DNA of 56,579 nucleotides from a virus. The notes below the pieces were generated by a model. That model searched no databases and was not told where the DNA came from. It saw only the letters and a list, made by a program, of their open reading frames with translations. The position numbers and the translations under genes are program-made. The stretch covers positions 1-56,579 of the IMG/VR virus record IMGVR_UViG_3300015371_000043. One strand, written 5' to 3'. The first letter of the stretch is position 1. Each line of letters starts with the position of its first letter. Positions 26,449 through 54,958 of this stretch are shown here, piece by piece.

Positions 26449-26488
26449 TCGCGGCTTGAGGATCGACGTGCGGATGGCAGATGAATAC

Positions 26489-26512: not shown

Positions 26513-26535
26513 GGCCATGCTTATAGGAGGGCTGC

Positions 26536-27428: not shown

Positions 27429-28088
27429 ATGGCCGTGAACTGTGGCGTGAGCTTCGGAATCTGCCGCCTGCGGGTGACAACCGTTGACGCGAGCGGCAAC
27501 GTAATTGGTACCGCGAACAACTCCTACGTCACTGACTCAGTGACGTCGGTCGGCCTTACCCCGAACATCGAGACGGGTGACACCTTCTCGCAGCGGAACG
27601 GGTGCGGCTGCTCGGTCGCTCGCTTCAAGGCGAACGACACGTTCAACTGGTTCGAGTTCGCGTTCCAGAACGCGGCACTTGAGCCTGCGCTTATGTCCCT
27701 GATGCTCGGCACCGCCACCATCGAAGATGGTGCTGACATTGTGGGTCAGGCGTTCTCGGGCGCCCTCGCATGCGATGAAGACGAGCCTGCGGTGGCACTT
27801 GAGTTCTGGACGAAGCACATCGTTGGCTCTGGCCAGGACGGGACGTACCCGTGGATCCATTGGGTCTTCCCGAAGACGGTGTGGCAGATCGGCGACAACA
27901 CGTTCGAAGAGGCCATCGCGCTTCCGACGCTGAACGGGTTCTCGCGGACAAACCTCAACTGGGGCGACGGTCCTTACGGCGATGGCCCGCCGGACGGACA
28001 GGACATCTCGGAGGGTGGTTGGTGGAAGACGGACGTGGATCCGCCTGCCGCTGCCTGCGCCTCCGCCAACGTCACCCCGTCGAGCTAA
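27429..28088 (+). CDS. Major tail protein candidate (219 aa)
   Basis: It has a strong AAAGGAGG site. The product is beta-rich with four Cys in the first 65 residues (NCGVSFGIC, GCGCS) and a WIHWVFPKTVWQIGD motif seen in tail-tube-like proteins. It is followed by a second tail-like gene and a strong terminator, as expected for highly expressed structural genes. The identification rests on position and composition. Confidence 0.6.
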   Translation: MAVNCGVSFGICRLRVTTVDASGNVIGTANNSYVTDSVTSVGLTPNIETGDTFSQRNGCGCSVARFKANDTFNWFEFAFQNAALEPALMSLMLGTATIEDGADIVGQAFSGALACDEDEPAVALEFWTKHIVGSGQDGTYPWIHWVFPKTVWQIGDNTFEEAIALPTLNGFSRTNLNWGDGPYGDGPPDGQDISEGGWWKTDVDPPAAACASANVTPSS

Positions 28089-28118
28089 CCGGGACTCACC
28101 GGAAGGAGGTAGCACGCA

Positions 28119-28631
28119 ATGACGGCCAAGACCTACGCGGTGACGAACGGTGCCGCACCGGGCGCTGCCGCTGCTGTCGCTCTTACGACGGGCACAGCGA
28201 TCAAGACGCACATCCAGCTCGCGACCAACACGACGACTCCGGCGATCCGGTTTGTCGAGTGGTGGGCCGAGTTCGATGGCTCCACGGCCGCTACGCCGAT
28301 CAAGGTCGAGCTGATCCGCCACACCGGTGGTGCGCAGACGACCCTGACCGCGTACGCTGCCGCGGACATCGCCAAGGTCAACGACCCGAACGCTCCGGCC
28401 AGCTCGATCCAGCTTGGTACGGCGCTGTCCGGGTTCTCCAACACGACGACCGAGGTCACCCCGACCTCTGCCGTCTCGCTGGAGACTCACTTCGTTCCGC
28501 CGACCTCCGGCATCTACGTCCAGTTCCCGCTTGGTCGTGAGCCTGAGGTGCAGGTGTCCGCGTTCGCCCGCCTTCGCACCACGGCAGGCGCAGCGGTCAA
28601 CTGCTACGGCGGACTCATGTGGGAAGAATAG
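28119..28631 (+). CDS. Tail or decoration protein (170 aa)
   Basis: It starts after GGAAGGAGG. The protein is Ala/Thr-rich and all-beta in appearance (IQLATNTTTPAIRFVEWWAE; VSAFARLRTTAGAAVNCYGG), like capsid decoration or tail-tube-associated proteins. A strong terminator-like hairpin follows 19 bases later, so its transcript is probably abundant. Confidence 0.6.
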   Translation: MTAKTYAVTNGAAPGAAAAVALTTGTAIKTHIQLATNTTTPAIRFVEWWAEFDGSTAATPIKVELIRHTGGAQTTLTAYAAADIAKVNDPNAPASSIQLGTALSGFSNTTTEVTPTSAVSLETHFVPPTSGIYVQFPLGREPEVQVSAFARLRTTAGAAVNCYGGLMWEE

Positions 28632-28650
28632 TTAAGACGGGTTGATGGAA

Positions 28651-28682
28651 GAGAGAGGGCGGGGTTTCCCCCGCCCTCTCTC
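28651..28682 (+). terminator. Strong hairpin after the capsid/tail block
   Basis: A perfect 14-bp stem, GAGAGAGGGCGGGG / CCCCGCCCTCTCTC, closes a TTTC loop. No T-run follows, but the stem is very stable and lies in a 120-base gap between genes. Confidence 0.75.
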
Positions 28683-28753
28683 GAAGTGATGACCGCATTA
28701 CTGGTTAGCATCTTTCTCGCGGGGGCGTCAATACACGGAAGGAGTCGAATACC

Positions 28754-30124
28754 GTGAAGCGTCTGCTGGCTGTAGTCGCTGTTGCTCTAGTTGTGTGCGT
28801 CGCTGGGGGTGCGGCAGCCGACACGTTCTCGGTGCGACTTGTTTCGCAAACCAACACAACGATCACGCTTGGCTGGGATGCGCAGCCAGGCTACGGCTAT
28901 TTGTTCTCGGCTGGCGGCGTGTTGGTCTCGCGCACTAATGACGCTTCGCGCACTTCGGTGAAGTTCTCCAAGGTCACACCCGCGTCATATGACATCGATG
29001 TGATCGTTAAGGGTGCGAATGGTCACTATCCGAGTGAGCCACCTCTGCCCCCGCCGCCTAAACCTGCAGCTTCGCTCAATCAGACGATTCTGTCCGGCTC
29101 AACAGTGTCCGGGACGGTGGTGTGGCAGGCCACCTATGACGGCAATGGTGACGGTGTTCCGGACGACCCAGGTTCTATGAGGTTTTCGGTGGACGGCAAC
29201 GTTGTCTTGACGGAGACGACACCGCCGTTTGGTGACACCGCTGGATTCTGGGACTCCACGACCGTCGGAAACGGCAGCCACACATTCAAGGTGGAGGCGG
29301 TTTCCGACAGCGGCACCGTCGTTGTGGCGAACACGGTCACTGCGAGCGTATCTAACGGCACGCAGCCGCCTCCGCCGCCGACAGGTTTCCCGAATGCGTC
29401 CAACACCGGGGTACCCGCGGGGACCACGCTGACGGCATACACGGGTCCGTCGAACATCACCACTGCGGGCACCGTGATTAACGGCAAGTCGATTGGGTGC
29501 TTGCAGATTTCAGCGCCAGGCGTCGTGATTCGCAATTCGAAGATTTCCTGCAACGGCTTCTACGCGCTGCTGCAAGAGTCCGGAGGCGCTCCGATGCTGA
29601 TCGAGGACTCCGAGATTGACTGCCAGGGATCGAACGGCACCGGCCTTGCTGACTCGAACTTCACCGCTCGCCGCCTTGACATTTCCGGTTGCGAGAATGG
29701 CCTCTCGATCAACCATGACATGACGATTGAAGACTCGTACATTCATGACCTCACAAACAGCGCCGAAGCTCACCTGGACGGCATCCAGTTCGACCCGTAT
29801 GTGAACGCCAACAACATCACGATTCGGCACAACACGATCTACGGGATGGGGTCCGACGGGTCGTTTGGCACGTCCGCGATCATCGACCACTCGTTCCGCC
29901 AGAACAGCAATGTCCTGATCGACGGGAATCTGATGGCGGGTGGAGCGGCGACGATCTACTGCTCGATCGGATTCACGGGCATCAACTATCGGGTCACGAA
30001 CAATGCGTTCTCCACCAAGTTCAAGTCGACGGTGGGGTTCTATTTCCCGTCCACTGAATGCTCTGACGAGACACAGTCCGGCAACTACATCTACGAGACA
30101 GGCCAGCCCCTGCATCTCGACTGA
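28754..30124 (+). CDS. Exported beta-helix protein with FN3-like domains
   Basis: It begins (GTG 28754, after GGAAGGAG) with a typical signal peptide: KRLLAVVAVALVVCVAGGAAA. Two beta-sandwich domains follow (FN3-like to about residue 95, then a Big-like DGNVVLTETTPPFGDTAG to about 210) with Pro linkers. From about residue 215 it is a right-handed beta-helix: repeated G-V-V-I-R-N-S, IEDSEIDCQG, IEDSYIHDL and NNITIRHNTI coils, as in pectate-lyase-like polysaccharide lyases. It could act on cell-surface glycans. The catalytic set is not identified. Confidence 0.8.
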   Translation: MKRLLAVVAVALVVCVAGGAAADTFSVRLVSQTNTTITLGWDAQPGYGYLFSAGGVLVSRTNDASRTSVKFSKVTPASYDIDVIVKGANGHYPSEPPLPPPPKPAASLNQTILSGSTVSGTVVWQATYDGNGDGVPDDPGSMRFSVDGNVVLTETTPPFGDTAGFWDSTTVGNGSHTFKVEAVSDSGTVVVANTVTASVSNGTQPPPPPTGFPNASNTGVPAGTTLTAYTGPSNITTAGTVINGKSIGCLQISAPGVVIRNSKISCNGFYALLQESGGAPMLIEDSEIDCQGSNGTGLADSNFTARRLDISGCENGLSINHDMTIEDSYIHDLTNSAEAHLDGIQFDPYVNANNITIRHNTIYGMGSDGSFGTSAIIDHSFRQNSNVLIDGNLMAGGAATIYCSIGFTGINYRVTNNAFSTKFKSTVGFYFPSTECSDETQSGNYIYETGQPLHLD

Positions 30125-31068
30125 TGAGGATCGGGATTACGACATCGATCGCCACCGCCATCGCTGTCGGTGTGCTCATCGCTAGCACTGGCGGTGGCGG
30201 TGGAGCGTGTGCGTTCCCATCCTGTTTCCCGGACGCGACCAATACCGGTGTTCCCGCGGGCACAACACTTACCGCATATTCAGGGCCGTCCACGATCACG
30301 ACCAACAACACGGTGATTGATTCGAAAACGATCAGTAGTTGCTTGGAGATTCGAGCGACTGGTGTGATCATCAAGAACTCGCATCTGACCTGCGACACCA
30401 GCAGCACGGTGTACGCAATCCTCGTAGACGACTCGGTGGGAGCATTCGATCTAACGATTCAAGACTCGGAGGTCGAATGCTCCCCGAACCGGGGTAACTC
30501 AACAGCGCTTGGATCGGCGTTCATCACCGCTAGACGCGTGAACATTCACGGATGCGAGAACGGCGGCGACATCAACCAGTCCTTCGACATTCAAGACTCG
30601 TATATCCACGACATGTTCCAGTCAGCAGACACCGTCACTTATCCACCTGACGGAACTCACACTGACGGGTTGCAGTTCGGTACCGGCCACTTCACCCCGC
30701 CGGGGGGCGCCCTCGTTGGGAACGTGATCAACGTCACGATCAAGCACAACACGATCCTGTCGATGTGCCCTGGCGCAACAACGCCAGAGCCAGACGCGGA
30801 CTGTTACACAACCTCGGCGATCATCGACCACTCATTCGCGGCCAACACCAACATCACCATCTCCCAGAACCTGCTGGCTGGGGGTGCGGCAACGCTGTAC
30901 TGCTCAATCGGCTTTACGGGCACCAACTATCACGTCGATGACAACCGGTTCTCCACCCGCTACAACACCAACGTTGGCTTCTATCAGCCCGTGTCAGAGT
31001 GCGGCGACCAAACCAACTCCGGCAACATCTATTACGAGTCCGGGTTGCCGGTTGACATGAACCAGTAG
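30124..31068 (+). CDS. Exported beta-helix protein, second copy
   Basis: Paralogue of the gene before: shared NTGVPAGTTLTAY, IQDSYIHDM, IIDHSF and AGGAAT-YCSIGFTG blocks. It has its own signal peptide (ITTSIATAIAVGVLIAS) but lacks the two beta-sandwich domains, leaving the beta-helix alone. It starts one base into the previous stop. The pair is a clear tandem duplication with domain loss. Confidence 0.8.
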   Translation: MRIGITTSIATAIAVGVLIASTGGGGGACAFPSCFPDATNTGVPAGTTLTAYSGPSTITTNNTVIDSKTISSCLEIRATGVIIKNSHLTCDTSSTVYAILVDDSVGAFDLTIQDSEVECSPNRGNSTALGSAFITARRVNIHGCENGGDINQSFDIQDSYIHDMFQSADTVTYPPDGTHTDGLQFGTGHFTPPGGALVGNVINVTIKHNTILSMCPGATTPEPDADCYTTSAIIDHSFAANTNITISQNLLAGGAATLYCSIGFTGTNYHVDDNRFSTRYNTNVGFYQPVSECGDQTNSGNIYYESGLPVDMNQ

Positions 31069-31782
31069 ATGGCAATCGCGTACACGAACCAGAAGGCTTC
31101 CGGGAGCGCCGCATCCGGCAACTCAATCGTGATCACCGTTCCGGGGGGCGGGTTCACCGCGGGCAACCAGTTGATCGTCGCCGCATACAACGAGGACGAC
31201 ACATACAACATTTCGTCGGTATCGGCAGGTGGCAACCTATACACCCAAAACCACCGGATTGTCGACACGCCCGTGTCTTTCTCAACAGTGATCCTCGGTG
31301 AGATTTATCTCGCATCAGGAATGGCGGCGGCGTCAACGATCACGGTGACGACTACCACGTCTGTTGGTGGCGTCGTGTCTGTGTACGAATTCTCCGGCCT
31401 GATGACCGGCGACTGTTTCGACAAGGCGGCATCCGCTGTCATCAACTTCGACACCGCCTACGACTCAGGAGCAACCGCCACGACTACGCAGGCGGACGAG
31501 CTTTTGTTTGGGGTCAACCACTCGTTTGATCAGACCATCACGTTCCTTCCTTTGAACAGTTTCAGCGAAATCGATGAAAACGCGTGGTTCGCATCGTGGG
31601 ATACGCAGGTGCAATACAAGATCGTGTCCGCGACCGGCACGTACAACTCGACAGCAACCGCATCCGGTGCAACGAAAGGGATCGCGGCGATTGGAACGTA
31701 CAAGGCTGCGCCGTCCGGCCCGGCACCCGACACCCAAACCCGCCGCTATCAGATCCGTCGTTCTCGTATGACAAGCTGGTAG
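31069..31782 (+). CDS. Beta-sandwich virion/adhesin protein (237 aa)
   Basis: It directly follows the second beta-helix gene without a gap. The sequence is all-beta and Ser/Thr/Gly-rich (GNSIVITVPGGGFTAGNQLI), similar in style to the next gene, and ends in a short basic tail (RRYQIRRSR). Likely a tail- or capsid-attached binding protein. Confidence 0.65.
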   Translation: MAIAYTNQKASGSAASGNSIVITVPGGGFTAGNQLIVAAYNEDDTYNISSVSAGGNLYTQNHRIVDTPVSFSTVILGEIYLASGMAAASTITVTTTTSVGGVVSVYEFSGLMTGDCFDKAASAVINFDTAYDSGATATTTQADELLFGVNHSFDQTITFLPLNSFSEIDENAWFASWDTQVQYKIVSATGTYNSTATASGATKGIAAIGTYKAAPSGPAPDTQTRRYQIRRSRMTSW

Positions 31783-31785
31783 CCG

Positions 31786-32550
31786 ATGGCAGCCGTAACC
31801 CTTCTCGGCGCAGTCACATTCGACACCAACGCCGGTAACAAAACGGTCACCGCAACCCCGGCTGTCGGCGATCTGATCGTGATCGTCGCTGCTTCTACAG
31901 GGCTAGCTGGTGGTACAACCGCATGCTCGGATAACCAGACTCGTGCTGGCACCTACGCGCAGGTTGACGCCGATCGCACCGGCTTCTCGACCACTGGTGT
32001 GCTGACCGTGTGGGTACGAAATGAACTGATCCTGGAGGCCAACTCCACAATCTTCACAGCATCACAGGGCGGATCTTCTGGTGGCGGCCTCGCCGTGCTG
32101 AAGGTCACCGGAATGAGCATCGCCGGAGCCTCCGCGGTACGCCGCATCGGGGTTGCCACATACAACACCGGAGGCCAGTCCAGCGGCACCGCGGCTACCA
32201 CACCAGCCCCGGTGATGGGGGCGGCAGTGTTGACGACAAATCCGGTGATCATGGCTGTCTGCAACGGCACCAACAGCACAACTACTGTGGTTCCACGGGC
32301 GAGCTTCACTGAACGATTCGACAACGGCTACACCGTTCCTGCAACCGGGATGGAAGTCTCTACCCGTGACTCAGGTGAGACCGGCACCACGCTGACGATG
32401 GGCGGCACGACCGCCTCGACGTTTGCATCGGTGGCGATTGAACTCGACTCATCAGTGCCGCAGTACGACTACGTGATCCAGGGCCGAGCAGACAAGGAAC
32501 GGCCGATCGCATTCCTGCATGCGAACCATGTGCGCGCCTCATTCTGGTAA
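31786..32550 (+). CDS. Beta-sandwich virion/adhesin protein, related (254 aa)
   Basis: It resembles the preceding gene in pattern: a G-N-K-T-V-T-A-TPAVGDLIVIVAA opening, a Thr/Gly-rich middle and an FASVAIELD C-terminal strand. The final residues are basic and aromatic. The two genes probably encode related surface domains. No catalytic motif is seen. Confidence 0.63.
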   Translation: MAAVTLLGAVTFDTNAGNKTVTATPAVGDLIVIVAASTGLAGGTTACSDNQTRAGTYAQVDADRTGFSTTGVLTVWVRNELILEANSTIFTASQGGSSGGGLAVLKVTGMSIAGASAVRRIGVATYNTGGQSSGTAATTPAPVMGAAVLTTNPVIMAVCNGTNSTTTVVPRASFTERFDNGYTVPATGMEVSTRDSGETGTTLTMGGTTASTFASVAIELDSSVPQYDYVIQGRADKERPIAFLHANHVRASFW

Positions 32551-32581
32551 CTAGCCGCCGCTCGTTGTAGTCTCTGCAGCG

Positions 32582-32812
32582 ATGGCAGCCCCGAAGGTCA
32601 TTACCGCGGTCAAAACGATCGCGGAAGCTAACGAGGTGCGTCTTCTTTGCCCGTATTGCAATGACGCAATCTATGTGCAGTTGTCATGGCCGTACACCAG
32701 CGTCGATAAACAGCGAAGGATCAGCGAAGCGATCACTGAACATCGCAAGTTGTGCGTCAAGGCCCCGCCAGAAGCGGGACGCGTATACCGGATCGACTAC
32801 CCAAGGAAGTAA
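32582..32812 (+). CDS. Small zinc-finger-like protein (76 aa)
   Basis: It has LLCPYCNDAIYVQLSWP and a later ITEHRKLC, giving a CxxC...HxxxC set. The rest is basic. It ends by overlapping the next gene's ATG. A nucleic-acid- or protein-binding role is inferred. Confidence 0.68.
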   Translation: MAAPKVITAVKTIAEANEVRLLCPYCNDAIYVQLSWPYTSVDKQRRISEAITEHRKLCVKAPPEAGRVYRIDYPRK

Positions 32813-33507
32813 TGCGTAGGGATGAATGGGCACGTCTTGCCCAGCTAGATACGCGTGTCTCCCCACATATGAGAAGCAAGGGTCCGGTATCCACGCCGGG
32901 CGCCCGCATGATTGAACTGAACAGCCAACTGCAACGAACCCAGGTCGCGCTTGGCGAATCTCTCAACGAGATCAACAGCCTAGAAAAAAAGCTAGCGCGG
33001 TTCACCGAGTTCGGCGAAGTGTCGTTCGGCGGTGTCCGAATGGCTCAGATTTGGGCTGACATGATCGTCTGGGAAGGCATTCTGAACATTCGCAAGTTTC
33101 GAGCGATCATCGAACTTGGCACATTCGAGGGCGGCTTCTCGTGGTGGCTGTGGGCGCAAACTCAGGTGCGCAAAGGAATGAACTTCTATACGTATGACAG
33201 CCGTGTGCCGGAGAACCCGCCGCCGGGATTCGAGAAGAAAGACGTTTTTGCGTGCGCAGATGAGCTAGGAAAGATCATGCGTCTAAACGAGCCGTGCGTC
33301 GTGTTCTGCGACAACGGCAATAAGCCGCGCGAGATGGAGATCTTCTCGAAAGAGCTACGGGACGTAAACAGTGTTCTGGTTGTGCATGATTGGGGCACAG
33401 AGTTCCTTCCCGAAGACATTCCCGATACGGTTGAAATGGTGTACGGCGACTTTTGCGAAGAGATCGGCTCAGTCAGCCGTGTGTTCCGAATAAAGGAGAA
33501 CAAATGA
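32812..33507 (+). CDS. Class I methyltransferase-like protein
   Basis: An N-terminal coiled segment (LNSQLQRTQVALGESLNEIN) precedes a Rossmann-type core: AIIELGTFEGGFSWWLW (motif I), FYTYDSR with acidic/aromatic residues, CVVFCDNGNK and VLVVHDWGTEF. The GTFxGGFS pattern is like cephalosporin-hydroxylase/rhamnosyl-O-methyltransferase enzymes. ATG 32812 shares a base with the previous stop; a longer frame from 32752 is less likely. It may methylate sugars made by the adjacent glycosyltransferases. Confidence 0.78.
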   Translation: MRRDEWARLAQLDTRVSPHMRSKGPVSTPGARMIELNSQLQRTQVALGESLNEINSLEKKLARFTEFGEVSFGGVRMAQIWADMIVWEGILNIRKFRAIIELGTFEGGFSWWLWAQTQVRKGMNFYTYDSRVPENPPPGFEKKDVFACADELGKIMRLNEPCVVFCDNGNKPREMEIFSKELRDVNSVLVVHDWGTEFLPEDIPDTVEMVYGDFCEEIGSVSRVFRIKENK

Positions 33508-33647
33508 TCTTCAGCAGTCGCGCAATTCAAGCTGGGGTTACAGGAGCACTGGTTGCGTTGTTTTCGGTTACGGCAGGGCTGCTGGCAGGGGCAGCGATTC
33601 TTTCAACGGCTCTGCTTTGGTACTTCGTGGGGAAAGGCGACCAATGA
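33504..33647 (+). CDS. 47-residue membrane microprotein
   Basis: ATGA overlap with the methyltransferase, with AAAGGAG upstream. Most of the peptide is hydrophobic (GALVALFSVTAGLLAGAAIL; ALLWYFVG), consistent with one long or two short membrane spans. The role is unknown. Confidence 0.62.
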   Translation: MIFSSRAIQAGVTGALVALFSVTAGLLAGAAILSTALLWYFVGKGDQ

Positions 33648-34207
33648 GCCAACGCGGACGGCACTACTATGACCCGATCACACAGCCGCCGCTGGCCGAG
33701 GGTGAACAGCGTGACGTTTCGCGGATCGAGGTATTTCAGGATCCAGCTGATCCGACGCTTCGGCGTTGGTGCGCGAGACACGTGCTGTCTGATGGGCGCG
33801 TCGATCCTGAAGGCATCGAGGACACCGATCGCGACCGCGTCATTGCCATGGCGCAGAGCGCTTGGCCGGAGCTGGACGTGTACGAACTACAGGATCCTGG
33901 GGAGGACTCGACCTGGGAAGGCATGGGGCCATCACCGAGACTATGGCAGAGTGGTTTGGAATTTAGCTCGGCCGAACGGGAGATTCTTCATGCTGCAAAT
34001 GTCACGCCAGCGAGTGAAGTTCATTACCCGGCCGAGGAGAAGCAGATTCCACTGCGCGTGATTGTTGCCTCCGAACCTGGGACGTACCTATTGATCGACG
34101 ACGTGATCCAGCTTCTAGATGGATGGGCCGTCCAGTACGACGAGGACAAGAACCCGTCTGGGGCAATGGCGCTGCGTGAAGCTGCCCAAACCCTTAGAGA
34201 GATCTGA
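33644..34207 (+). CDS. Hypothetical acidic protein (187 aa)
   Basis: It starts at an ATGA overlap (33644). It has a central aromatic-rich stretch and an acidic C-terminus. No domain is recognised. It is flanked by two membrane microproteins, all overlapping, so it is part of the same coupled operon. Confidence 0.7.
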   Translation: MSQRGRHYYDPITQPPLAEGEQRDVSRIEVFQDPADPTLRRWCARHVLSDGRVDPEGIEDTDRDRVIAMAQSAWPELDVYELQDPGEDSTWEGMGPSPRLWQSGLEFSSAEREILHAANVTPASEVHYPAEEKQIPLRVIVASEPGTYLLIDDVIQLLDGWAVQYDEDKNPSGAMALREAAQTLREI

Positions 34208-34296
34208 TGACTCTTGGAGAACAGTGTTGCTGGCTCATATTCGTCGTCGCTGTTGTTGAGGTGGCGTTTGCAGTTGTCATGCTGACGGTGGGTTGA
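34207..34296 (+). CDS. 29-residue membrane microprotein
   Basis: It starts within the preceding stop codon, and its TGA (34294-34296) overlaps the next ATG. A single hydrophobic helix (WLIFVVAVVEVAFAVVML) is present. Its tight packing between genes supports it. Confidence 0.55.
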   Translation: MTLGEQCCWLIFVVAVVEVAFAVVMLTVG

Positions 34297-35156
34297 TGGG
34301 CGGTCTCGTTGGAATCATTGCGAACGATTTCGCGCGCTCATCGCTGTTCACGTCATGCGTGATGAAGCTCGATGTTCCAGACGGCTGGCGCAAGGAGATG
34401 CTGATCGGTGGTGACTGGTGCGGTGCCCGCAACACGCTCTGCAGCATGCTTCTCGAAACAGACGATTTGACCCACCTCTGGTTTATGGATGACGATCATG
34501 CGTTCCCGCCGGGAATGCTCAGACAGCTTCTCGCCCACAACGAAGCACTCGTCTCACCGATTTGTCTTACGCGCACATATCCGTTTGCGCCGGTGCAGTA
34601 CACCGAAAAGGTCGGCGAGAACCAGTATCTGCCAATCAAGTTCTCCGAGTTCGACCACAAGGGGCTTGTGAAGTTGGAGGTTGGTGGCGCGGCTGGCATG
34701 CTGATCCGCCGTGACGTGATCGAGAAGATCGAGTCGCCGTGGTTCGAGTACACCGATCGTTCAGAGGACATCGTCTTCTGCGAGAAGGCCAAGGAAGCTG
34801 GCTTCACGCTCTACGCAGATCTGGAATGTCGACTTGGACACATCACTACCGCCGTTGTTCATCCTGCGGTGCGTGATAATGACTGGAAGACAGGTCTGAC
34901 GATCGGCCGTGATCTGAACCTGATTGTGGATACGGCCGAGAATGTAGTGGCTGAACGTCCAGGGCAGCCAGCAACCGTCCAAACGTGGGTGTGGGAGCTA
35001 CGCCGTGTTCTGGACGATGACCTCATCATTAGGCTGTTTCTCCCGGCAGGAACACCGTTCAACGTTCCCCCGAACGGTGAGAAGATTCTTTCGCAGTGGT
35101 ATTGCGACGACGGCATCGACGGCTTCAAGGTCGTCGGGGATCCATTCCGCTACTGA
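34296..35156 (+). CDS. GT-A glycosyltransferase, tandem copy 1
   Basis: A short GT-A protein with VGIIANDFARSSLF, GGDWCGARNTLCSMLL, the metal site WFMDDDHAFPPGML near residue 65, and a late RSEDIVFCEKAKEAG (ED acid). It is 286 aa, longer than copies 2-4, with a C-terminal domain of about 75 residues that the others lack. Four such genes follow one another. Donor and acceptor are unknown. Confidence 0.8.
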   Translation: MGGLVGIIANDFARSSLFTSCVMKLDVPDGWRKEMLIGGDWCGARNTLCSMLLETDDLTHLWFMDDDHAFPPGMLRQLLAHNEALVSPICLTRTYPFAPVQYTEKVGENQYLPIKFSEFDHKGLVKLEVGGAAGMLIRRDVIEKIESPWFEYTDRSEDIVFCEKAKEAGFTLYADLECRLGHITTAVVHPAVRDNDWKTGLTIGRDLNLIVDTAENVVAERPGQPATVQTWVWELRRVLDDDLIIRLFLPAGTPFNVPPNGEKILSQWYCDDGIDGFKVVGDPFRY

Positions 35157-35809
35157 TGAGCGGGATGATTGGAATCATCTCCGACCATTCGGCGCGATAC
35201 ACGTGGTTTCAGCAATCGCTCGAAGGGCTGATCCGACCGGAGGGCACCGTCACCGAATGGCGCGTCGGATCAAACCGGGGTGTGTGCCGCGAACAGCTCG
35301 CCCGCGCCTGTGTTGATCGCGACTGCGACTGGCTGTTCTTCGTTGATGACGACCAGGTGTTCCAGCCGGACGCGCTTTGTCGGATGCTGGCGTGGGAGCA
35401 GCCAGTCGTGTCGGCGCTGATCCTTCAGCGGGGCGCCCCTTTTCTGCCAACGATCTACAAGACCAAACAGGACGACCGCTTCTATCCGCTGGATTTGCAG
35501 TCGGTCGGTGATAACCAGCTTGTCACCTGTGCCGGGGTCGGAACAGGCGGTCTCTTGATTCGGGGCGATGTGCTGCGTAAGCTCGACGACGGGCGTCCTT
35601 GGTTTGTGTACGACGAGAAGTTCGGCGAGGACTTGTATTTCAGCAACCGCTGCAATGAGGCAGGCATTCAGATGCTCGTTGACACTGGTTGCCGGATGGG
35701 CCATCTGATTCCGGCGGTGGTGGTCGCCTCATGGTTCGGCGACCGGTGGGGTGTTGGGATTCAGCTGGCGGACGGAACAGCCACCGCGATTGAGATGCAG
35801 CACTCATGA
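35156..35809 (+). CDS. GT-A glycosyltransferase, tandem copy 2
   Basis: It has IGIISDHSARYTWFQQSLEG, NRGVCREQLARACVD, WLFFVDDDQVFQPDAL, VGTGGLLIRGDV and FGEDLYFSNRCNEAG. These blocks line up with copies 1, 3 and 4. ATG 35156 overlaps the previous TGA. It is a minimal single-domain enzyme of 217 aa. Confidence 0.83.
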   Translation: MSGMIGIISDHSARYTWFQQSLEGLIRPEGTVTEWRVGSNRGVCREQLARACVDRDCDWLFFVDDDQVFQPDALCRMLAWEQPVVSALILQRGAPFLPTIYKTKQDDRFYPLDLQSVGDNQLVTCAGVGTGGLLIRGDVLRKLDDGRPWFVYDEKFGEDLYFSNRCNEAGIQMLVDTGCRMGHLIPAVVVASWFGDRWGVGIQLADGTATAIEMQHS

Positions 35810-35994
35810 GACTCGACGAATCATTCGAACTCACCAAAGCGCTTGAAGAGGCGCTCAACAACGGTGGTTTCCACGTGCAGGCTAGTGAGCGTGATGGTCT
35901 TGATGAAGAACGCATGACCGTATCGTTTCACGGAGATCGCGGACCGTGGTTCGAGCTGATCGCATATCTCGACATCGACAAGGACGACGAGTGA
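35806..35994 (+). CDS. Small acidic protein (62 aa)
   Basis: It lies between glycosyltransferase copies 2 and 3, overlapping both by four bases. A helix followed by a strand-rich second half (MTVSFHGDRGPWFELIAYLD) is visible. The function is unknown. Confidence 0.63.
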   Translation: MRLDESFELTKALEEALNNGGFHVQASERDGLDEERMTVSFHGDRGPWFELIAYLDIDKDDE

Positions 35995-36650
35995 GCGTTC
36001 TGATCGGTGTGTCCGCGTCCGTGAACGCGAGATTCTCGGCATTCACGGAATGCTTGGCGAACCTACACAAGCCACCGATGAGCGAAACGATGATCGCTAC
36101 CGGCATCGACATCGGCGCGAATCGAAACGCGATCGTGCGTAGGGCACTGAGCGAGAGGTTCTCGCATGTCTGGTTCGTCGATGATGACATGACATTTGGG
36201 CCGGAGCATCTGATGTTGATGACGACGCACGATCGTCCCGTCGTTGCGAGTTTGTATCTGAACCGTAAGCCACCGCACTACGCGATGGCGTTCAACGACA
36301 GCGCTGTAGTGGAGGGCATACGTGTGTGGCGTCCAGTGAGTCTTGGTGGGGCACCGGAAACGGGTCTTGCTGATGTGATCGCTGCAGGCACAGGCGGAAT
36401 GCTTGTCAATACCGATGTGTTCCGCGCGATCGAGTACGACACTTGGTTCGACCATCACCAGTCCACCGACGATCTAGCGTTCTGCCAGCGCGTGATCGAC
36501 GCGGGCTTCCCGATCTATCTTGACCTGCGGGCGGTAATGGGCCACATCTCAACCTACGAGATCTGGCCGCTGTATCAGCAGCAGCAGGGATGGAGTGGCG
36601 ACGTGCGTATTTCAGACAACTGTTCGTTCAAAGTGCGGCTAGGTGATTAG
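35991..36650 (+). CDS. GT-A glycosyltransferase, tandem copy 3
   Basis: The start is GTG 35991 in a GTGA overlap. It has VLIGVSASVNARFSAFTECL, DIGANRNAIVRRAL, the metal site WFVDDDMTF, AAGTGGMLVNTDVFRAI and STDDLAFCQRVIDAG (DD in place of ED). It belongs with copies 1, 2 and 4. Confidence 0.83.
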   Translation: MSVLIGVSASVNARFSAFTECLANLHKPPMSETMIATGIDIGANRNAIVRRALSERFSHVWFVDDDMTFGPEHLMLMTTHDRPVVASLYLNRKPPHYAMAFNDSAVVEGIRVWRPVSLGGAPETGLADVIAAGTGGMLVNTDVFRAIEYDTWFDHHQSTDDLAFCQRVIDAGFPIYLDLRAVMGHISTYEIWPLYQQQQGWSGDVRISDNCSFKVRLGD

Positions 36651-36822
36651 CGTCTGCCATACCTGTGGTAAGCCTGCAATTGCTTTAGCGTCGGCTCTCA
36701 ATCCAGGTGGACCGGTCTGCTGGATACATTCGTGGGGGGACACACAGAAACAAGCAGAGGCCGCTTTCTATGCGGCAGTTATCGACATTGCCAGAAAAGT
36801 AAAGGAGAGCACTGAAAAATGA
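36643..36822 (+). CDS. Small Cys-containing protein (59 aa)
   Basis: GTG 36643 lies just before the previous stop, and TGA 36820-36822 overlaps the next ATG (36819). It has an N-terminal CHTCGK and a later PVCWIHSW, a possible zinc site, then a helix (EAAFYAAVIDIARKVKES). AAAGGAG for the next gene is inside its end. Confidence 0.6.
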   Translation: MISVCHTCGKPAIALASALNPGGPVCWIHSWGDTQKQAEAAFYAAVIDIARKVKESTEK

Positions 36823-37478
36823 GTGGCCATATCGCTGTCGTCTGTAATGACTCAGCCCGTTACAGCATGTTTTGGATCTGCCTGTCCGACATGCACAAGC
36901 CTGTCAACACCAGGCCGATCTGGGAGATCACTTCTGATCGCATCCTCGGACGCAACGAGGCTGCTAGGGAGATGCTGGATAAGGGCGGTGAATGGCTGCT
37001 GTGCCTTGATGACGATCACGTGTTCTCGACTGGATTGCTTAATCGGCTGCTGTCACACAACAAGCCCGTTGTGGGCGCCCTGTATTTGCAGCGAGCGAAG
37101 CCATTTCTGCCGATCGCCTATTCGCACAAGGACGAAGAGGGCCGCTACCACAACATTAATCTGCACAACCATGGCGAGAACGATCTGATCGAGGTTGCGG
37201 CTGTGGGCACTGGTGGAATGTTGATTCGCGCCGAAGTGTTCCGCAAGCTGTCATGGCCCTGGTTTGAGCACGGCCGTGCTTCCGAGGACCTGATCTTCTG
37301 CGACAAGGTGTACGAGGAAGGACTCGGCCCCGTCTACTGCGATCTCGGTGCTCGCCTTGGGCATATCGCACCGGCGGCGTTGTGGCCCGCATTCCAGGAC
37401 GACAAGTGGGCGGCCGGGTTCGCGCTAGCGGATGGGTTTTCGGTCACCGTAGACCTGCCTGACGAAGAGTCCGTCTAG
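36819..37478 (+). CDS. GT-A glycosyltransferase, tandem copy 4
   Basis: It shares IAVVCNDSARYSMFWICLSD, GRNEAAREML, WLLCLDDDHVFSTGLLNRLL, VGTGGMLIRAEVFRKL and ASEDLIFCDKVYEEG with copies 1-3. Start AAAGGAG-ATG 36819 is clear. The four copies probably arose by duplication and divergence and may add different sugars. Confidence 0.83.
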   Translation: MSGHIAVVCNDSARYSMFWICLSDMHKPVNTRPIWEITSDRILGRNEAAREMLDKGGEWLLCLDDDHVFSTGLLNRLLSHNKPVVGALYLQRAKPFLPIAYSHKDEEGRYHNINLHNHGENDLIEVAAVGTGGMLIRAEVFRKLSWPWFEHGRASEDLIFCDKVYEEGLGPVYCDLGARLGHIAPAALWPAFQDDKWAAGFALADGFSVTVDLPDEESV

Positions 37479-37498
37479 CGAAGTAACCTCTCTTTGAA

Positions 37499-38218
37499 AT
37501 GCTGATCCCTGTGGCTGTCGTTTCTTCTGGGACTGCGGAGCCTTCTGTTGTCGCCCCGGCAGTCAGCGGCTATGACCTGTGGCTTGACGCGAGCGACCCA
37601 GCGACGGTGACGCTCGACGGGAGCGGGCTGCTCGCGTCAACATGGGCGGACAAGAGCGGCAACTCGTACACCGCGACCGCGACCGGGAGCATCCCGTACG
37701 TGAGGACAAGGCTGAACTCGCGGCAGATGATGATGATGATGGGGGCGCAGCATTTCACGGCGGCGGGGGCGCAATGGGCGGCCGACGCGACCTCATCCGC
37801 GTTTTTTGTCGGGAACATGTGGGCGCTTACGAACTACCGGACATTGCTGCACGGTTCAGCGGCCACCACATTCCAATGGGTGTTTGCGACCTCGGTCTTG
37901 GAGCTGTATCTGTCGGGCGTTTCGGGTATCGCCTCTAAGAGCAACGGCGGCATTACAGAGGCGGTTCCGTTCATCGCGGGCGTACGCGTGAGCGCGGCAA
38001 CCACGCAGTATCTGAAGACGCGCGGGGCGTCGGTGACGCAGGAGACGGACGGGGCGGCGTCCACCAATGCTTCGCCCGATCTTCTGATCGGCAAGAGCGT
38101 TGGTTCCCCGTTCTATTTCCAGGGTCTAATCGGTGAGGTCATCACGTACCCGACCACGCTGTCAGACGCAGACACGCTATCGGTGATCTCCGGCCTGTCG
38201 ACCAAGTGGGATATCTGA
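37499..38218 (+). CDS. LamG/concanavalin-like surface domain protein
   Basis: The sequence follows a LamG-type jelly roll: YDLWLDASDPATVTLDGSGL, STWADKSGNSYTA, a middle beta-rich part and a closing FQGLIGEVITYPTTLSDAD. Such domains bind carbohydrates and are common in phage tail fibres and virion decorations. A run of five Met near residue 78 is odd. No Shine-Dalgarno site is evident; a TAACCT lies 10 bases upstream. Confidence 0.72.
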   Translation: MLIPVAVVSSGTAEPSVVAPAVSGYDLWLDASDPATVTLDGSGLLASTWADKSGNSYTATATGSIPYVRTRLNSRQMMMMMGAQHFTAAGAQWAADATSSAFFVGNMWALTNYRTLLHGSAATTFQWVFATSVLELYLSGVSGIASKSNGGITEAVPFIAGVRVSAATTQYLKTRGASVTQETDGAASTNASPDLLIGKSVGSPFYFQGLIGEVITYPTTLSDADTLSVISGLSTKWDI

Positions 38219-38220
38219 GC

Positions 38221-38442
38221 ATGAGAGTTTATTTGGCGAACAGGTCGCCCCGTGTCAGCGGTCGCCAGTTTTTCTTGAAACGCCAAACATCAGTTTTGTC
38301 ACGACGTCCGCCTGTGATCGTCCGCTGCCGCTTCATGCCAAAGCGTTCACGTCCACGTGTCGCTCGTTCTTGTGCAGCCGCGGTTAAGCGCAAGACCAAA
38401 CCGCGACCAACAGACCATCCTGTAGATAGGCGGGCCGTCTAG
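38221..38442 (+). CDS. Small Arg/Pro-rich protein, relative of the repeat protein
   Basis: The 73-aa product is very basic (RRPPVIVRCRFMPKRSRPRV) and matches the Arg...P-P-x-V-V pattern of the 1,097-residue protein that follows. Its stop shares a base with that gene's GTG. It may be one or two copies of the same repeat made as a separate protein. Confidence 0.65.
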   Translation: MRVYLANRSPRVSGRQFFLKRQTSVLSRRPPVIVRCRFMPKRSRPRVARSCAAAVKRKTKPRPTDHPVDRRAV

Positions 38443-41400
38443 TGGCCCGCTTCATGCGCACCGACCTCGGGACAGGGCATTCCAACCTCGCTCCGCCCGC
38501 GGTTGTCGGCGAAGGCATCGTTTTCCCGCCGATCCAGGGCTACCTGTTTCCTGTCGCAGAAGTTCGGCAGGAGATCCTGCGGCGCAAAGCCATATCGCGG
38601 CTGCGGCCACCGGCGGTTGTTGCGCAACCGACACCGTTTGTTGCCGCGCCAGTGCGTACCTATGGCGCTGACGAGCAGGACCAGACACAGCACCGGTCAC
38701 GACAACGGGCCACCACCTGGTTGCTCAGACCGCCGGTTGTCATTGACCTACGTCCACAGACCGTCTACCTAAACGTCAATCTCGCCTATTCGCGTAGGGG
38801 TCAGCCGAAATCGTTGCTGCGGCCGCCTACCGACACTGTCGGGCTGGAGGACCAGGGTCGCGTCAAAGTTGCACTGACGCCTTCACCGCGACAAGCGCGC
38901 GCGCCACATTCGCGACTGCGGCCACCGGTTGTCATTGACCTGACGCCGCAGACGAAATATCTGTCGGTCAATCTCGCTTATCAGAGACGTGGAACACCAA
39001 AATCGCGTCTTGGTGCACCGACTGTTGTAGATACCAGAGTTTATTACGGGCCGACAGTAACGCTTGCGTATTCACTGCGAGGAAAACCAAAGTCTGTTCT
39101 TCGCCCGCCTGTTGTTATCGACCTGACACCGCAGGTGTATTACCTGGTTGTTGGTCTCGCTTACTCGCGACGCGGACAGCCAAAACCAAAACTACGGCCG
39201 CCAACTGTCGTTGCCGTCGGCGACATCTTCTATGGCCCAGTCGTTCGTTTGGCAAAGCCAATTCCGAGACGATTTGTCAAATCTACTTTGCGCACTCCCG
39301 CGGTTGTCGCGCAAACGGTCAGCGCACTCGGCGGCATCGGGATCTCGCTGGCACCTTCTCGCAAGCCGACGGCCAAGTCGGTTCTTCGCGCCCCGGTCGT
39401 TGTTACCCAGACAACCGCTGCCGTCTATTACGGACCGACGACCGTTCTTGCGGCTGCCGTCAGGACTGTCGCGAAGTCGAGACTATTCGCACCCGCCGTA
39501 GTTGGCGAAGGAATCGTTTTCTCGCCGATCCAGGGTTCGCTGACGCCGCTCAGCTACGCAACTTTGCCCCGGGCTAAATCGGTTCTGCGTCCACCGACAA
39601 CTGTCGTCGTCGCCGTCGTCTATTACGGCCCGGCCGTCACTTTCGCCTACCAGTCGCGTGGCCGCACCAGATCGCTGCTGTTCCAACCTGTCATTCCGCC
39701 GGTTGCACGGCCTGTACAGGTAACGCTTGCCAGGATCAGGCCGCGGCCTGTGTTGTCGGCATTGCAGCCGCCGACGGTTATCGATAACAGCCCGCAAGTC
39801 GTCTATCTGGCGGTCACGCTTGCGTACTCGCGCAGGGGCGTCCCGAAATCGCGACTGCAGCCGCCGACGGTCGTTGATACCAGGGTCTATTTCGGGCCGT
39901 CGGTCACGCTTGCCTATTCACGGCGAGGTGTTCCGAAGTCGGTGCTCCACGCACCAACGGTCATCGACCTACGGCCGCAGGTTTATTACCTCACCGTCAT
40001 GCTCGCGCCTTCCAGGCGAGGGCAGCCGAAGTCGCGGCTTATTCCGCCAACGGTCATTGACGTCCGTGTTTACAGCGGCCCCGCAGTCACGCTTGCTTAC
40101 AGCCGTCGCGGTCAGCCGAAGCCGAGACTTGCTCCGCCTACGGTCATCGATCTCAGGCCGCAGGTCTTCTATCTATCAATCAACCTCGCGTACTCGCTAC
40201 GCGGACGTCCAAAGCCCCGGCTGTTTGCGCCAGCGGTAATCAGTCGCGTTGCTTTCTTTGGGCCAAAAGTAATCCTCACGTATTCCCGGCGCGGTAGAGC
40301 ACGCGCCGGGCTTGCCGCCCCGATGGTGGTGTTCATTCCGGAACCGGTTCTGTATCCGGTTGCGGTCACGCTTGCCTACCAATCCAGAGGCAAGCCGAAA
40401 TCGTTCCTGCGTAGACCGCAGGTTGTTGGTGCCGTTGTCTATTACGGCCCGGCCGTTGCGCTTGCGTACTCCAGGCGGGGGCGCCCGCTCTCGGTGCTGC
40501 GCAAGCCGGTGGTCATTGACCTTCGACCGCAAACCTATTACCTCGCTGTCCAACTTGCCTATTCCAGGCGCGGCCGCCCGCTGTCTGAACTCAAGCCGCC
40601 GACGGTCATTGAGGTTCGTGTTTACAGCGGCCCTGCCGTAACTCTCGCGTACAGCCGTCGCGGTACACCGAAGCAGGAGCTGCGTCCGCCGACGGTCATT
40701 GAGGTTCGTGCTTACAGCGGCCCCGCCGTAACTCTCGCGTACAGCAGTCGCGGAACTCCGAAGTCAGAGCTACGGTCGCCAACGGTTATCGACCTACGGC
40801 CGCAGGTCTATTACCTGAGCGTCACGCTGGTCAGGATCGCGCCGCCGCCGACGATGTCGCGGCTGTCGCCTTCGACAGTCACGGAGGCATTGCCGAGAGC
40901 AGAACGCGATCTTCGTATCTATCTCGCATATTCCCGGCGCGGGGTTGCCAAATCTCGTCTCAAGCCGCCGACAGTTATCGACAACCGGCCGCAGGTCAAG
41001 TACCTACGGGTCGAGCTTGCGTATTCCAGACGCGGTGTCACGAAGCCGTTCCTGCTGCCGCCTGTTCTTGAATCGGAACGGTTCTTCGGTCCGAAGATCA
41101 CGCTTGTCCGTCGGCCCACGCCGAAGACGACGTTCCTGGTCAACCCGCCCGCCAGAGTCAAGGCAGCGTTCTATGCGCGGCCGGTTCAGGTTTTCCTTGC
41201 CCGTAACAAGCCTCAGCCGACCGCTAAGAAGCTACGGCCGCCGACCGTTGTCTTCCCGTTCTTCGCCCGCGCGATTGAGATCACGCTCGCGCCGCAGGCG
41301 CGTGGGAAGACACGCAGCCAGCTTCTCCCGCCAGCGGTAGCCCGCTTCTTCGTTGCCGCACCGCTTCGTGTCTTCCTGACACCGTCGCAGACACGCAAGG

Positions 41401-41735
41401 CGAAGTACGGTCTTGCCGCTCCTGCGATCATCGGCGCTCCGGTCGCCTTCTACGGGCCGACCGTCAATCTGACCAGGATCGTTCCGCCGCCTGTCGGCTA
41501 TGGACTGGCCCCGCCAGCAGTCGTCAGCACTTTCGTTCCGCCAGCGGGAGATGTGTGTGGATTCGATATCGCAGGCTCATTCGTCTGCGAAACCGTGGAA
41601 ACCATCGTCGATGTCTGTGAAACAGTCACGCCTGGCACTGACCTCGTATCCGGAATGTCCGCCAATGAAAGTACGATCGAAGGCGGCGATGGCCCTGCGG
41701 GGAGCGTGTCAGGCAGCGATCAGGAGAGTGTCTAG
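38442..41735 (+). CDS. Giant basic repeat protein (1,097 aa, LAYSRRG-PPTVV repeats)
   Basis: About 32 imperfect repeats of roughly 33 residues make up nearly the whole protein. The unit is a strand ending LAYSRRGxPKS, a link LRPPTVV or PPVVI, then a turn such as DLRPQVYYL or VYYGPAVT. It is strongly basic, with no signal peptide and no catalytic motif. The last 70 residues differ: acidic, with Cys residues (VCGFDIAGSFVCETVETIVD). It lies between an adhesin-like gene and the head-tail adaptor, so a virion fibre, an internal DNA-binding protein or a tail extension are all possible. Confidence 0.85.
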   Translation: MARFMRTDLGTGHSNLAPPAVVGEGIVFPPIQGYLFPVAEVRQEILRRKAISRLRPPAVVAQPTPFVAAPVRTYGADEQDQTQHRSRQRATTWLLRPPVVIDLRPQTVYLNVNLAYSRRGQPKSLLRPPTDTVGLEDQGRVKVALTPSPRQARAPHSRLRPPVVIDLTPQTKYLSVNLAYQRRGTPKSRLGAPTVVDTRVYYGPTVTLAYSLRGKPKSVLRPPVVIDLTPQVYYLVVGLAYSRRGQPKPKLRPPTVVAVGDIFYGPVVRLAKPIPRRFVKSTLRTPAVVAQTVSALGGIGISLAPSRKPTAKSVLRAPVVVTQTTAAVYYGPTTVLAAAVRTVAKSRLFAPAVVGEGIVFSPIQGSLTPLSYATLPRAKSVLRPPTTVVVAVVYYGPAVTFAYQSRGRTRSLLFQPVIPPVARPVQVTLARIRPRPVLSALQPPTVIDNSPQVVYLAVTLAYSRRGVPKSRLQPPTVVDTRVYFGPSVTLAYSRRGVPKSVLHAPTVIDLRPQVYYLTVMLAPSRRGQPKSRLIPPTVIDVRVYSGPAVTLAYSRRGQPKPRLAPPTVIDLRPQVFYLSINLAYSLRGRPKPRLFAPAVISRVAFFGPKVILTYSRRGRARAGLAAPMVVFIPEPVLYPVAVTLAYQSRGKPKSFLRRPQVVGAVVYYGPAVALAYSRRGRPLSVLRKPVVIDLRPQTYYLAVQLAYSRRGRPLSELKPPTVIEVRVYSGPAVTLAYSRRGTPKQELRPPTVIEVRAYSGPAVTLAYSSRGTPKSELRSPTVIDLRPQVYYLSVTLVRIAPPPTMSRLSPSTVTEALPRAERDLRIYLAYSRRGVAKSRLKPPTVIDNRPQVKYLRVELAYSRRGVTKPFLLPPVLESERFFGPKITLVRRPTPKTTFLVNPPARVKAAFYARPVQVFLARNKPQPTAKKLRPPTVVFPFFARAIEITLAPQARGKTRSQLLPPAVARFFVAAPLRVFLTPSQTRKAKYGLAAPAIIGAPVAFYGPTVNLTRIVPPPVGYGLAPPAVVSTFVPPAGDVCGFDIAGSFVCETVETIVDVCETVTPGTDLVSGMSANESTIEGGDGPAGSVSGSDQESV

Positions 41736-42883
41736 TGGCCGATTACCAGCTCGGAACACCAATTCTGATCAACGACACGTTCTATGTTGCCGGGACGCCG
41801 ACTGATCCGACGACCGTTACCTACACGATCTATGTGCCCGACGGATCAGTAACGACCTACATTTGGCCAGGCGCACCAGCGATCACGCATTCCGGTCCAG
41901 GTGTGTTTTCACTGGCGGTAGGAGCGCCAACGATTGCTGGCTCGTATCACTACGACGTTGACGCGACAGGTGCAGTTGTAGCGTCACGACAAGGTTCGTT
42001 CAGCATCCTCCCAGATGCACAACGCGCTGACGTTGCCTGGGCGGTTAGTGGGCCGTGTAGCTCTTGGACGTCATCACAAGACGTGTGGAATTGCTGCGGC
42101 CAACCGACGGTAGAGATCGATGGTGTCACCTGCAACGTCGATTTCACCGCCGAGGCGCTGATGGCATCAGAGATTCTGTTCGAGCTTTCGGGTCGCCTCT
42201 ACTCGGGACGCTGTGAGAAGACAGTGCGTCCATGTCGCACCAATTGCGGCTGCGGTATCCAGGTGCTTTCGAGAGGACATGTCATTGCACCGTGGACGTG
42301 GATGGGTGATTCGTGGGGCTGTGACGATGATCCTTGCGGATGCGCACCACTCTCACGAGTGTTGCTCTCGGGGTACCCCGTGCGAGAAGTGATCGAGGTC
42401 AAGATCGATGGTGATGTCGTTGACCCTGACACTTATCGCTTGGACAATTTCCGCTGGTTGACACGCGTCCGGAATCCCGCCGACCCAGGTACAGCCTTGA
42501 GTTGGCCGTCATGTCAGCTCATGGATTTGCCGGATACCGAAGACAGCACGTTCTCTGTGACCTATGCCTACGGTCAGGATGCGCCACTGATTGGTCAGCA
42601 GGCCGCCTCCGCGCTCGCATGCCAGCTTTATCAGGCATGCGCTGGCGGAGTTGGTGAATGCCAGATCCCCGCGAACGCGGTGCGCGTGACCCGCCAGGGT
42701 GTGACGATCGATAAAAACGCGACGGTCGCTTGGTTTTATGGCAAGAACGGAACGAGTGGCTGGGCAACAGGAATCCCATCCGTTGATGCCTTTCTCAATT
42801 CATTCACCACAGGCGGGATGCGTCAGCGTCCGCGCACGTGGTCTCCCGATGCCTGGCGCTATGCGAAGGCGGTAGGGGGCTAA
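41735..42883 (+). CDS. Head-tail adaptor-like protein with N-terminal beta domain
   Basis: The N-terminal 90 residues are an Ig-like domain (PTTVTYTIYVPDGSVTTYIW). After that, FTAEALMASEILFELSGRLYSG, Cys-rich turns, VIAPWTWMG, VREVIEVKIDGDVVDPDTYRL and LACQLYQACAG fit the gp6/gp15-type connector of actinophages. The many Cys (CGCG, CCGQ, CDDDPCGC) are unusual. It starts with GTG in the preceding stop. Confidence 0.68.
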   Translation: MADYQLGTPILINDTFYVAGTPTDPTTVTYTIYVPDGSVTTYIWPGAPAITHSGPGVFSLAVGAPTIAGSYHYDVDATGAVVASRQGSFSILPDAQRADVAWAVSGPCSSWTSSQDVWNCCGQPTVEIDGVTCNVDFTAEALMASEILFELSGRLYSGRCEKTVRPCRTNCGCGIQVLSRGHVIAPWTWMGDSWGCDDDPCGCAPLSRVLLSGYPVREVIEVKIDGDVVDPDTYRLDNFRWLTRVRNPADPGTALSWPSCQLMDLPDTEDSTFSVTYAYGQDAPLIGQQAASALACQLYQACAGGVGECQIPANAVRVTRQGVTIDKNATVAWFYGKNGTSGWATGIPSVDAFLNSFTTGGMRQRPRTWSPDAWRYAKAVGG

Positions 42884-54445: not shown

Positions 54446-54958
54446 GTGAGTGGACGACACAAACTTTCAGGCTACGCAGTACCGGGTCCGCCGGTCGAGA
54501 CGGTCATCACACCTCGTACCGGAGGTGCAATCAAAGCCGCTTTGGTGCCGGTACGGAGACGCCGTTCCAAGTGGAAGCTGTTTCCTCCGTACATCGTGTA
54601 TCCGCTTCCGCCTGCGTCTCCGGAAGTAGTTACGAGGGAACGCCCGAAGCTAGTTGTTGTTGGAACAGCCAGAGCGATCCAGCGGCGACGGCCTCGTGTT
54701 CTACTCAGACAGCCATCTGTTGTTATTCAGCCAGCGCTGGCTGGATATGTAACGCTCGAACGTCCGAAGCTGGTTGCTATTGCATCGGCTCGGTCTGTCC
54801 GGCGTCTCAGGCCGCGCTTTGTGCTCGGGCGCCCGTCGTCTGTTGGCAGTCAGGTGGGTGCGGCAGCATTGGGCGGAGTCGGTATTCAACTTGTTCAGCC
54901 ACCAAGAGCAAGAGACACGTACTACGTGCTGCATCCTCCGGTTGTCGTCAATCCGTGA
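54446..54958 (+). CDS. Arg/Pro-rich protein, second relative of the repeat protein
   Basis: GTG 54446. After the shared LSGYAVPG tag, it has units like LVPVRRRRSKWKLFPPYIVY, RERPKLVVVGTARAI, RRRPRVLLRQPSVVI and LVAIASARSVRRLRPRFVL. They match the 33-residue repeat at 38442 (strand, RRG/RR, P-x-VV). It may be a short form of the same fibre or DNA-binding repeat. Confidence 0.7.
   Translation: MSGRHKLSGYAVPGPPVETVITPRTGGAIKAALVPVRRRRSKWKLFPPYIVYPLPPASPEVVTRERPKLVVVGTARAIQRRRPRVLLRQPSVVIQPALAGYVTLERPKLVAIASARSVRRLRPRFVLGRPSSVGSQVGAAALGGVGIQLVQPPRARDTYYVLHPPVVVNP

What the first reader, a model, noticed from the sequence alone, without database searches (positions are those of the whole stretch)
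38442..41735. A 1,097-residue protein built from about 32 LAYSRRG/PPTVV repeats
Seen: a basic repeat of about 33 residues fills nearly the whole protein, with an unrelated acidic Cys-bearing tail. I do not recognise the family. The genes at 38221 and 54446 are short relatives. Regular Arg-Arg-Gly turns and P-P-T-V-V strands suggest a long beta fibre or a DNA/polyanion-coating protein.
Basis: partly seen in the sequence, partly recalled or inferred. Interest (0 to 1): 0.72.

Follow-up and report, generated by a model that had tools for sequence, protein, structure and literature searches.

The report
Giant basic repeat protein in phages
A phage known only from metagenomes carries, among its virion genes, a 1,097-residue strongly basic protein made of 33 copies of an undescribed 31-residue repeat; the same repeat protein, with the same small set of partner genes, recurs in six other environmental phages with at least three unrelated capsids, which points to a mobile set of genes that probably decorates the virus particle.

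Summary
ORF 38442-41735 encodes 1,097 aa with 33 repeats of 30-31 residues (not 33), in a 61-residue double period, net charge about +106, and an acidic tail with three Cys. It matches nothing in Pfam, PHROGs, NCBIfam, PDB sequences, 50,697 phage records or 72,556 plasmids. Repeat searches and linkage found six relatives (795-1,338 aa) in uncultivated phages. Repeats persist at 40% and 67% genome GC (GC3 0.23 versus 0.88), so they are not a composition artefact. The array belongs to a conserved gene set: a conserved 170-aa predicted jelly-roll protein, Fringe-like glycosyltransferases, usually a 73-91-aa basic gene overlapping the array start, and directly downstream an Ig-like domain, fused to the head-tail adaptor in five phages and separate in two. 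Two carriers have capsids unrelated to the window's, so the set moves between phages. AlphaFold2 of four repeats gives no fold (pLDDT 40): disorder or an obligate oligomer. Best reading: an accessory virion-surface polycationic fibre or coat near the neck, binding anionic surfaces. 54446 is a probable short relative; 38221 is better seen as a separate small basic partner.

The parts
38442..41735 (+). Repeat-array protein, 1,097 aa, 33 repeats of about 31 aa
38469..41525 (+). Repeat region (residues about 10-1028), net about +118; alternating linkers DLxPQVYYL and VYYGP between conserved cores V.LAYSRRGxPKSxLRPPTVV
41526..41732 (+). Acidic C-terminal tail with three Cys; motif CGFDIAGSFVC shared with G010 and, as GFDFAPEVC, with G001 and G002
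38221..38442 (+). Small basic protein (73 aa, net +20); its stop overlaps the array start by one base; positional counterparts in five relatives
41735..42883 (+). Head-tail adaptor (PHROG 783) with an N-terminal Ig-like domain (about 41735-42019); starts on the last base of the array stop codon
28119..28631 (+). 170-aa predicted jelly-roll protein found with every array; 92% identical to the one in G001 although the major capsid proteins share only 57%
34293..37478 (+). Run of Fringe/GT-A-like glycosyltransferase genes (34293, 35096, 35946, 36819); homologues or look-alikes in every array phage
37499..38218 (+). LamG-like predicted virion protein of the cassette
54446..54958 (+). Probable short relative with four weak repeat units, in the tail-gene region
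28119..41732 (+). Whole accessory cassette inserted between major tail protein (27429) and head-tail adaptor (41735), which are adjacent in the cultured relatives checked

Best explanation
The array is the main chain of an accessory virion-decoration module. It is made late with the structural genes, coupled to the head-tail adaptor gene, and probably forms a long extended or beta-rich, probably oligomeric, polycationic fibre or coat on the outside of the particle near the neck. It would be held by its tail and/or by the Ig-like domain encoded directly downstream. About 30 basic units would give multivalent, low-specificity adhesion to anionic surfaces (teichoic acids, capsule, extracellular polymer) and raise the rate of encounter with the host. 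Shown: the repeat family, its conserved gene set, its location among virion genes and its spread between unrelated phages. Inferred: presence in the virion, place of attachment, oligomeric fold, adhesion.
For: In the five phages with the window's capsid type it is the last gene before the adaptor, in the slot between major tail protein and adaptor that is empty in five cultured records examined. The Ig-like domain follows the array in all seven: fused to the adaptor in five, a separate gene in G003 (5052-5339) and G011. Cassette neighbours look like surface proteins: LamG-like, predicted jelly-roll, pre-peptidase C-terminal domain, glycosyltransferases. Variable length (795-1,338 aa), changing tails and linker words shared and re-sorted between phages suit an exposed, recombining fibre. 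Hydrophobic and proline positions are conserved above basic ones. The same amino-acid repeat is kept at GC3 0.23 and 0.88.
Against: No protein data. AlphaFold2 found no fold for four repeats. Strong net positive charge would also suit a DNA-binding role. No trimerisation or adhesin tip is recognised. G003 lacks the Cys tail and G011 the small basic gene.
Confidence: 0.45

Rival explanations
1. Internal genome-condensing or ejected protein: the array and its small basic neighbour neutralise DNA in the head, as large cationic virion proteins do in ascoviruses (P64).
For: Net +78 to +145 in all seven arrays; partner of 73-91 aa with pI 12 and net +18 to +20. P64 is a large repeat-bearing cationic virion protein shown to condense DNA (PMC6163548).
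Against: About 40% hydrophobic residues with L/V/P positions conserved above basic ones; gene lies outside the portal-protease-capsid block in the window's capsid type; relatives with the same capsid manage without it.
Confidence: 0.2
2. Glycan carrier: Ser/Thr-Pro-rich repeats are sugar-coated by the cassette's glycosyltransferases, giving a mucin-like shield or ligand.
For: Glycosyltransferase genes in every array cassette; virion glycosylation is reported in mycobacteriophages (PMC11256854, citing Freeman et al. 2023); Ser+Thr 13-19%.
Against: The conserved repeat positions are Leu, Pro, Val and Arg; the Ser/Thr positions are only 46-70% conserved. The glycosyltransferases may act on other proteins or on the host.
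Confidence: 0.12
3. Multivalent scaffold: the repeats, or the acceptor they bind, dock other cassette proteins, several of which end in a similar basic/aromatic tag (RRSRxTSW, GRGASW).
For: Such endings on about ten cassette proteins in window, G001, G002, G004 and G010; alternating linker classes shared between phages.
Against: Tag-array interaction is untested; G003 and G011 cassettes show no such endings; part of the sharing may be paralogy.
Confidence: 0.08
4. Non-structural assembly factor, or a selfish low-complexity expansion without virion role.
For: No fold predicted; no adhesin domain recognised.
Against: Old repeats under protein-level selection, conserved across 40-67% GC and with conserved partners.
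Confidence: 0.1

Closest known systems
T4 fibritin (gpwac) and other collar or neck whiskers
   Same: Accessory repeat-bearing virion fibre at the neck (the proposed site here)
   Different: Fibritin is coiled coil; the array is proline- and arginine-rich, strongly basic, and no coiled coil or helix was predicted. Resemblance only, not a tested homology.
Ascovirus P64 (PMC6163548)
   Same: Large cationic virus protein with many basic tandem repeats
   Different: P64 repeats are about 13-residue Arg/Ser motifs with two-cysteine adaptor domains; here 31-residue units with a hydrophobic/proline frame in a tailed phage, and no two-cysteine adaptor domain found by Pfam.
Glycosyltransferase-equipped mycobacteriophages such as Che8 (Freeman et al. 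2023, cited in PMC11256854)
   Same: Tailed actinophages with phage-coded glycosyltransferases thought to modify virion proteins
   Different: No 31-residue array there; no cultured phage record matched it.
Structural module of cultured actinophages (Gordonia Sixama, Arthrobacter Atuin, Streptomyces YDN12, Actinomycetia phage DSL-LC01)
   Same: Same capsid (PHROG 777), portal, adaptor (PHROG 783) and gene order; capsid 28-37% identical to the window's
   Different: No gene between major tail protein and adaptor; no array, small basic gene or 170-aa gene.

Membership tests
Any known protein family (Pfam-A, PHROGs v4, NCBIfam 20) | Significant profile match to the array | tested here: not met
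   No match for the window array in any of the three; relatives tested in Pfam and NCBIfam had none either, except an insignificant TetR_C_3 score
Family of a protein with solved structure | Sequence-profile match to a PDB chain | tested here: not met
   Only a CFA/I fimbrial subunit at E 0.01 with no stretch passing on its own; treated as chance
Beta-solenoid or other self-standing repeat fold | Confident regular fold for consecutive repeats as a monomer | tested here: not met
   AlphaFold2, four repeats, 24-row alignment: pLDDT 40, pTM 0.17, no secondary structure
Obligate oligomeric beta-fibre | Homotrimeric fibre structure | not testable with these tools
   No multimer prediction on hand
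Neck whisker (fibritin-like) | Coiled-coil repeats and trimerisation domain | tested here: not met
   No helix in the four-repeat model and no trimerisation-domain match in Pfam
Ascovirus P64-type DNA condenser | Two-cysteine adaptor domains plus short Arg/Ser repeats | tested here: not met
   No Pfam match; repeat unit is 31 aa with conserved Leu/Pro/Val
Virion protein | Present in purified particles | not testable with these tools
   Context only
New 31-aa array family defined here | Repeat profile match, a downstream Ig-like gene or domain, and the 170-aa gene | tested here: met
   Seven phages; profile matches; context

The most novel reading that the evidence does not exclude
A mobile virion-decoration module of an undescribed kind, centred on a giant basic 31-residue-repeat protein with a small set of linker words that are re-sorted between phages, which plugs into unrelated tailed phages through an Ig-like adaptor and gives their particles a polycationic coat or a docking backbone for other tagged surface proteins.
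Probability: 0.3. Interest if true: 0.8.

Novelty: new variant of a known kind. Interest (0 to 1): 0.62.

Why it matters
Accessory fibres and coats affect how phages find hosts and persist in soil or water, but they are mostly known from cultured models. Here an undescribed giant repeat protein with fixed partners recurs in several environmental phages with different capsids and in none of 50,697 deposited phage records searched. If it is a polycationic adhesion layer, it would be a transferable way for phages to stick to anionic envelopes, testable with a recombinant array. It also offers a repeat system in which conserved cores and exchangeable linker words can be studied.

Tried and rejected
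GC-driven artefact or wrong reading frame: rejected (40% GC relative, pS above pN). Recent duplication: rejected (synonymous sites near saturation). Match to a known family, PDB chain, plasmid or deposited phage: none. Bacterial or prophage copies: a pattern scan of genome contigs gave 16 stretches with one match each; two held weak single profile hits (E 8e-5 and 1e-3) and none an array, so they were taken as chance; this does not exclude diverged copies. The first HMM test of 54446 was circular because its units were in the profile; it was redone with an independent profile and shuffles. The conserved C-terminal REGC of three relatives is probably the ribosome-binding site of the next gene (GAGAGGATG...) read in frame, so it was not used as evidence. 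An alignment of overlapping eight-repeat windows was unusable and replaced by four-repeat segments. The 170-aa protein's structural matches are to uncharacterised phage proteins; its PDB matches have E above 1e-3 and low TM-scores. Virus records have no 'relatives' search.

Full report
What is there. ORF 38442-41735 (GTG, 1,097 aa) is filled by a repeat. Profile searches place 33 units with a mean spacing of about 31 residues. Self-identity is highest at lags 61, 30 and 31 (0.22, 0.20, 0.18), against at most 0.116 in 1,000 shuffles. The unit has a conserved core, roughly V-x-L-A-Y/R/P-S-R-R-G-x-P-K-S-x-L-R-P-P-T-V-V, and a variable linker. In the window two linkers alternate (DLxPQVYYL and VYYGP), giving the 61-residue double period; D-type (DLVDQQDLG, GLEDQG) and other words dominate in relatives and are shared between phages. 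Over 153 units L8 is 90% and L22 96% conserved, P25 99% and V27 100% of those present, whereas the basic positions are basic in 46-61% of units. The repeat region carries about +118; the last 67 residues carry about -12 and three Cys.

It is a real, old coding repeat. Among 16 cores pS is 0.71 and pN 0.45. The relative G003 has 40% genome GC and GC3 0.23 in the array; G001 has 67% and 0.88. The same amino-acid pattern under such different codon use cannot come from base composition.

Relatives. No match in Pfam, PHROGs or NCBIfam, in PDB sequences (best E 0.01, taken as chance), in 50,697 phage records or in plasmids. Viral contigs gave six relatives: G001/L001 (1,338 aa), G002/L005 (at least 1,036 aa; an upstream ATG is likely), G003/L038 (1,125 aa), G004/L067 (961 aa), G010/L080 (795 aa) and G011/L081 (1,147 aa). 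G011 has diverged units (VRTRPRPTTRRLAPPTVV) but scores 282.7 bits with an independent profile against 25.4 for the best of 295 scored shuffles. G010 and the window share the N-terminus (MARYMRSDLGPGH / MARFMRTDLGTGH) and the tail motif CGFDIAGSxVC.

Context. The window is a virus record with an actinophage-type structural module: terminase, portal, capsid (PHROG 777), tail protein, adaptor (PHROG 783), tape measure. Its capsid protein is 28-37% identical to those of Gordonia, Arthrobacter, Microbacterium and Streptomyces phages. In the five cultured records examined the adaptor follows the tail protein directly or after a short gap; in the window 13 kb lie between, and in L008, a relative without array, about 1 kb. 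This insert holds a 170-aa protein, pectate-lyase-like, LamG-like and glycosyltransferase-like genes and, last, the array. ('Pectate-lyase-like' for 28754 and 30124 is my impression from the sequence; no library matched them.)

Conserved set. (1) The 170-aa gene occurs with all arrays; two arrays (G010, G011) were found through it, the others independently of it. Four further contigs that carry it end 0.5-4 kb downstream and are uninformative. It is 92% identical between window and G001 while their capsid proteins share 57%, and its DNA is 85-88% identical, which points to exchange of the module or unusual constraint. AlphaFold2 gives a confident beta-sandwich (pLDDT 85) that resembles uncharacterised phage proteins. 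(2) A basic ORF of 73-91 aa, net +18 to +20, ends at or just inside the array start in window, G001, G002, G003 and G004, and a similar ORF stands there in G010. Sequence similarity is clear among the four relatives in most pairings (none or few of 300 shuffles reach it) but not significant for the window copy, which is assigned by position, size and charge. (3) An Ig-like domain follows directly in all seven: the adaptor N-terminus in five, separate genes in G003 and G011. That these domains are Ig-like is judged from sequence pattern and position, not from a profile. (4) Fringe/GT-A-like genes occur in every cassette.

Mobility. G003 and G011 have no match to the window's capsid protein yet carry the set, before the head genes in G003 and before a different connector in G011. 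The set therefore moves between unrelated phages.

Structure. Four repeats with a 24-row in-register alignment gave pLDDT 40 and no secondary structure. Hydropathy and charge put all five arrays tested on the folded side of the Uversky boundary, although this is a crude measure; alternating hydrophobicity was above shuffles in two of five (z 3.2 and 2.2) and not in the others. Obligate oligomer or disordered chain both remain open; a beta fibre is not shown.

Function. Position among virion genes, coupling to the adaptor, surface-type neighbours, variable length and tails, and conserved non-charged frame favour an external accessory fibre or coat with polycationic adhesion (0.45). DNA condensation (0.2) is supported by charge and by the precedent of ascovirus P64 (PMC6163548). 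Glycan carrier, docking scaffold and assembly factor are less likely. No step from gene to virion has been shown.

Novelty. A new protein family in a recurrent gene set; as a kind it is closest to accessory phage fibres and decoration proteins, hence 'new variant of a known kind'.

Noticed in passing
window 31069-31782 and 31786-32550; G001 25726-26913 and 27617-28243; G002 28228-29280 and 29991-30653; G004 22598-23311 and 23262-23831; L080 12077-12721: Several otherwise different cassette proteins end in a similar basic/aromatic tag (RRSRMTSW, KRRRSRGTSWV, HNIRRSRKTSW, GGRGASW, GRGAGW), possibly a shared docking peptide.
   Followed up: partly
window 53930-54442 and 54446-54958: Two neighbouring tail-region proteins share an N-terminal peptide (MTGGNRFSGYAVP / MSGRHKLSGYAVP); the first has a PPC domain, the second is the short repeat relative.
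   Followed up: no
L067 13941-15281: The minor tail protein of G004 ends in one repeat-like unit (QQRRRRKTQSTLKPPTKINP; profile E 9e-4).
   Followed up: partly
window 16937-18604: Gene matching a PHROG of RNA-binding proteins (PHROG 850, E 3e-87) just before the portal gene.
   Followed up: no
window 14533-15609: Phage-encoded UDP-glucose dehydrogenase (PHROG 9148), which with the glycosyltransferases suggests a virus-coded sugar pathway.
   Followed up: no
window 41735-42019; L009-L036: The Ig-like N-terminal domain of the adaptor has weak relatives in 28 other viral contigs whose held stretches show no array.
   Followed up: partly
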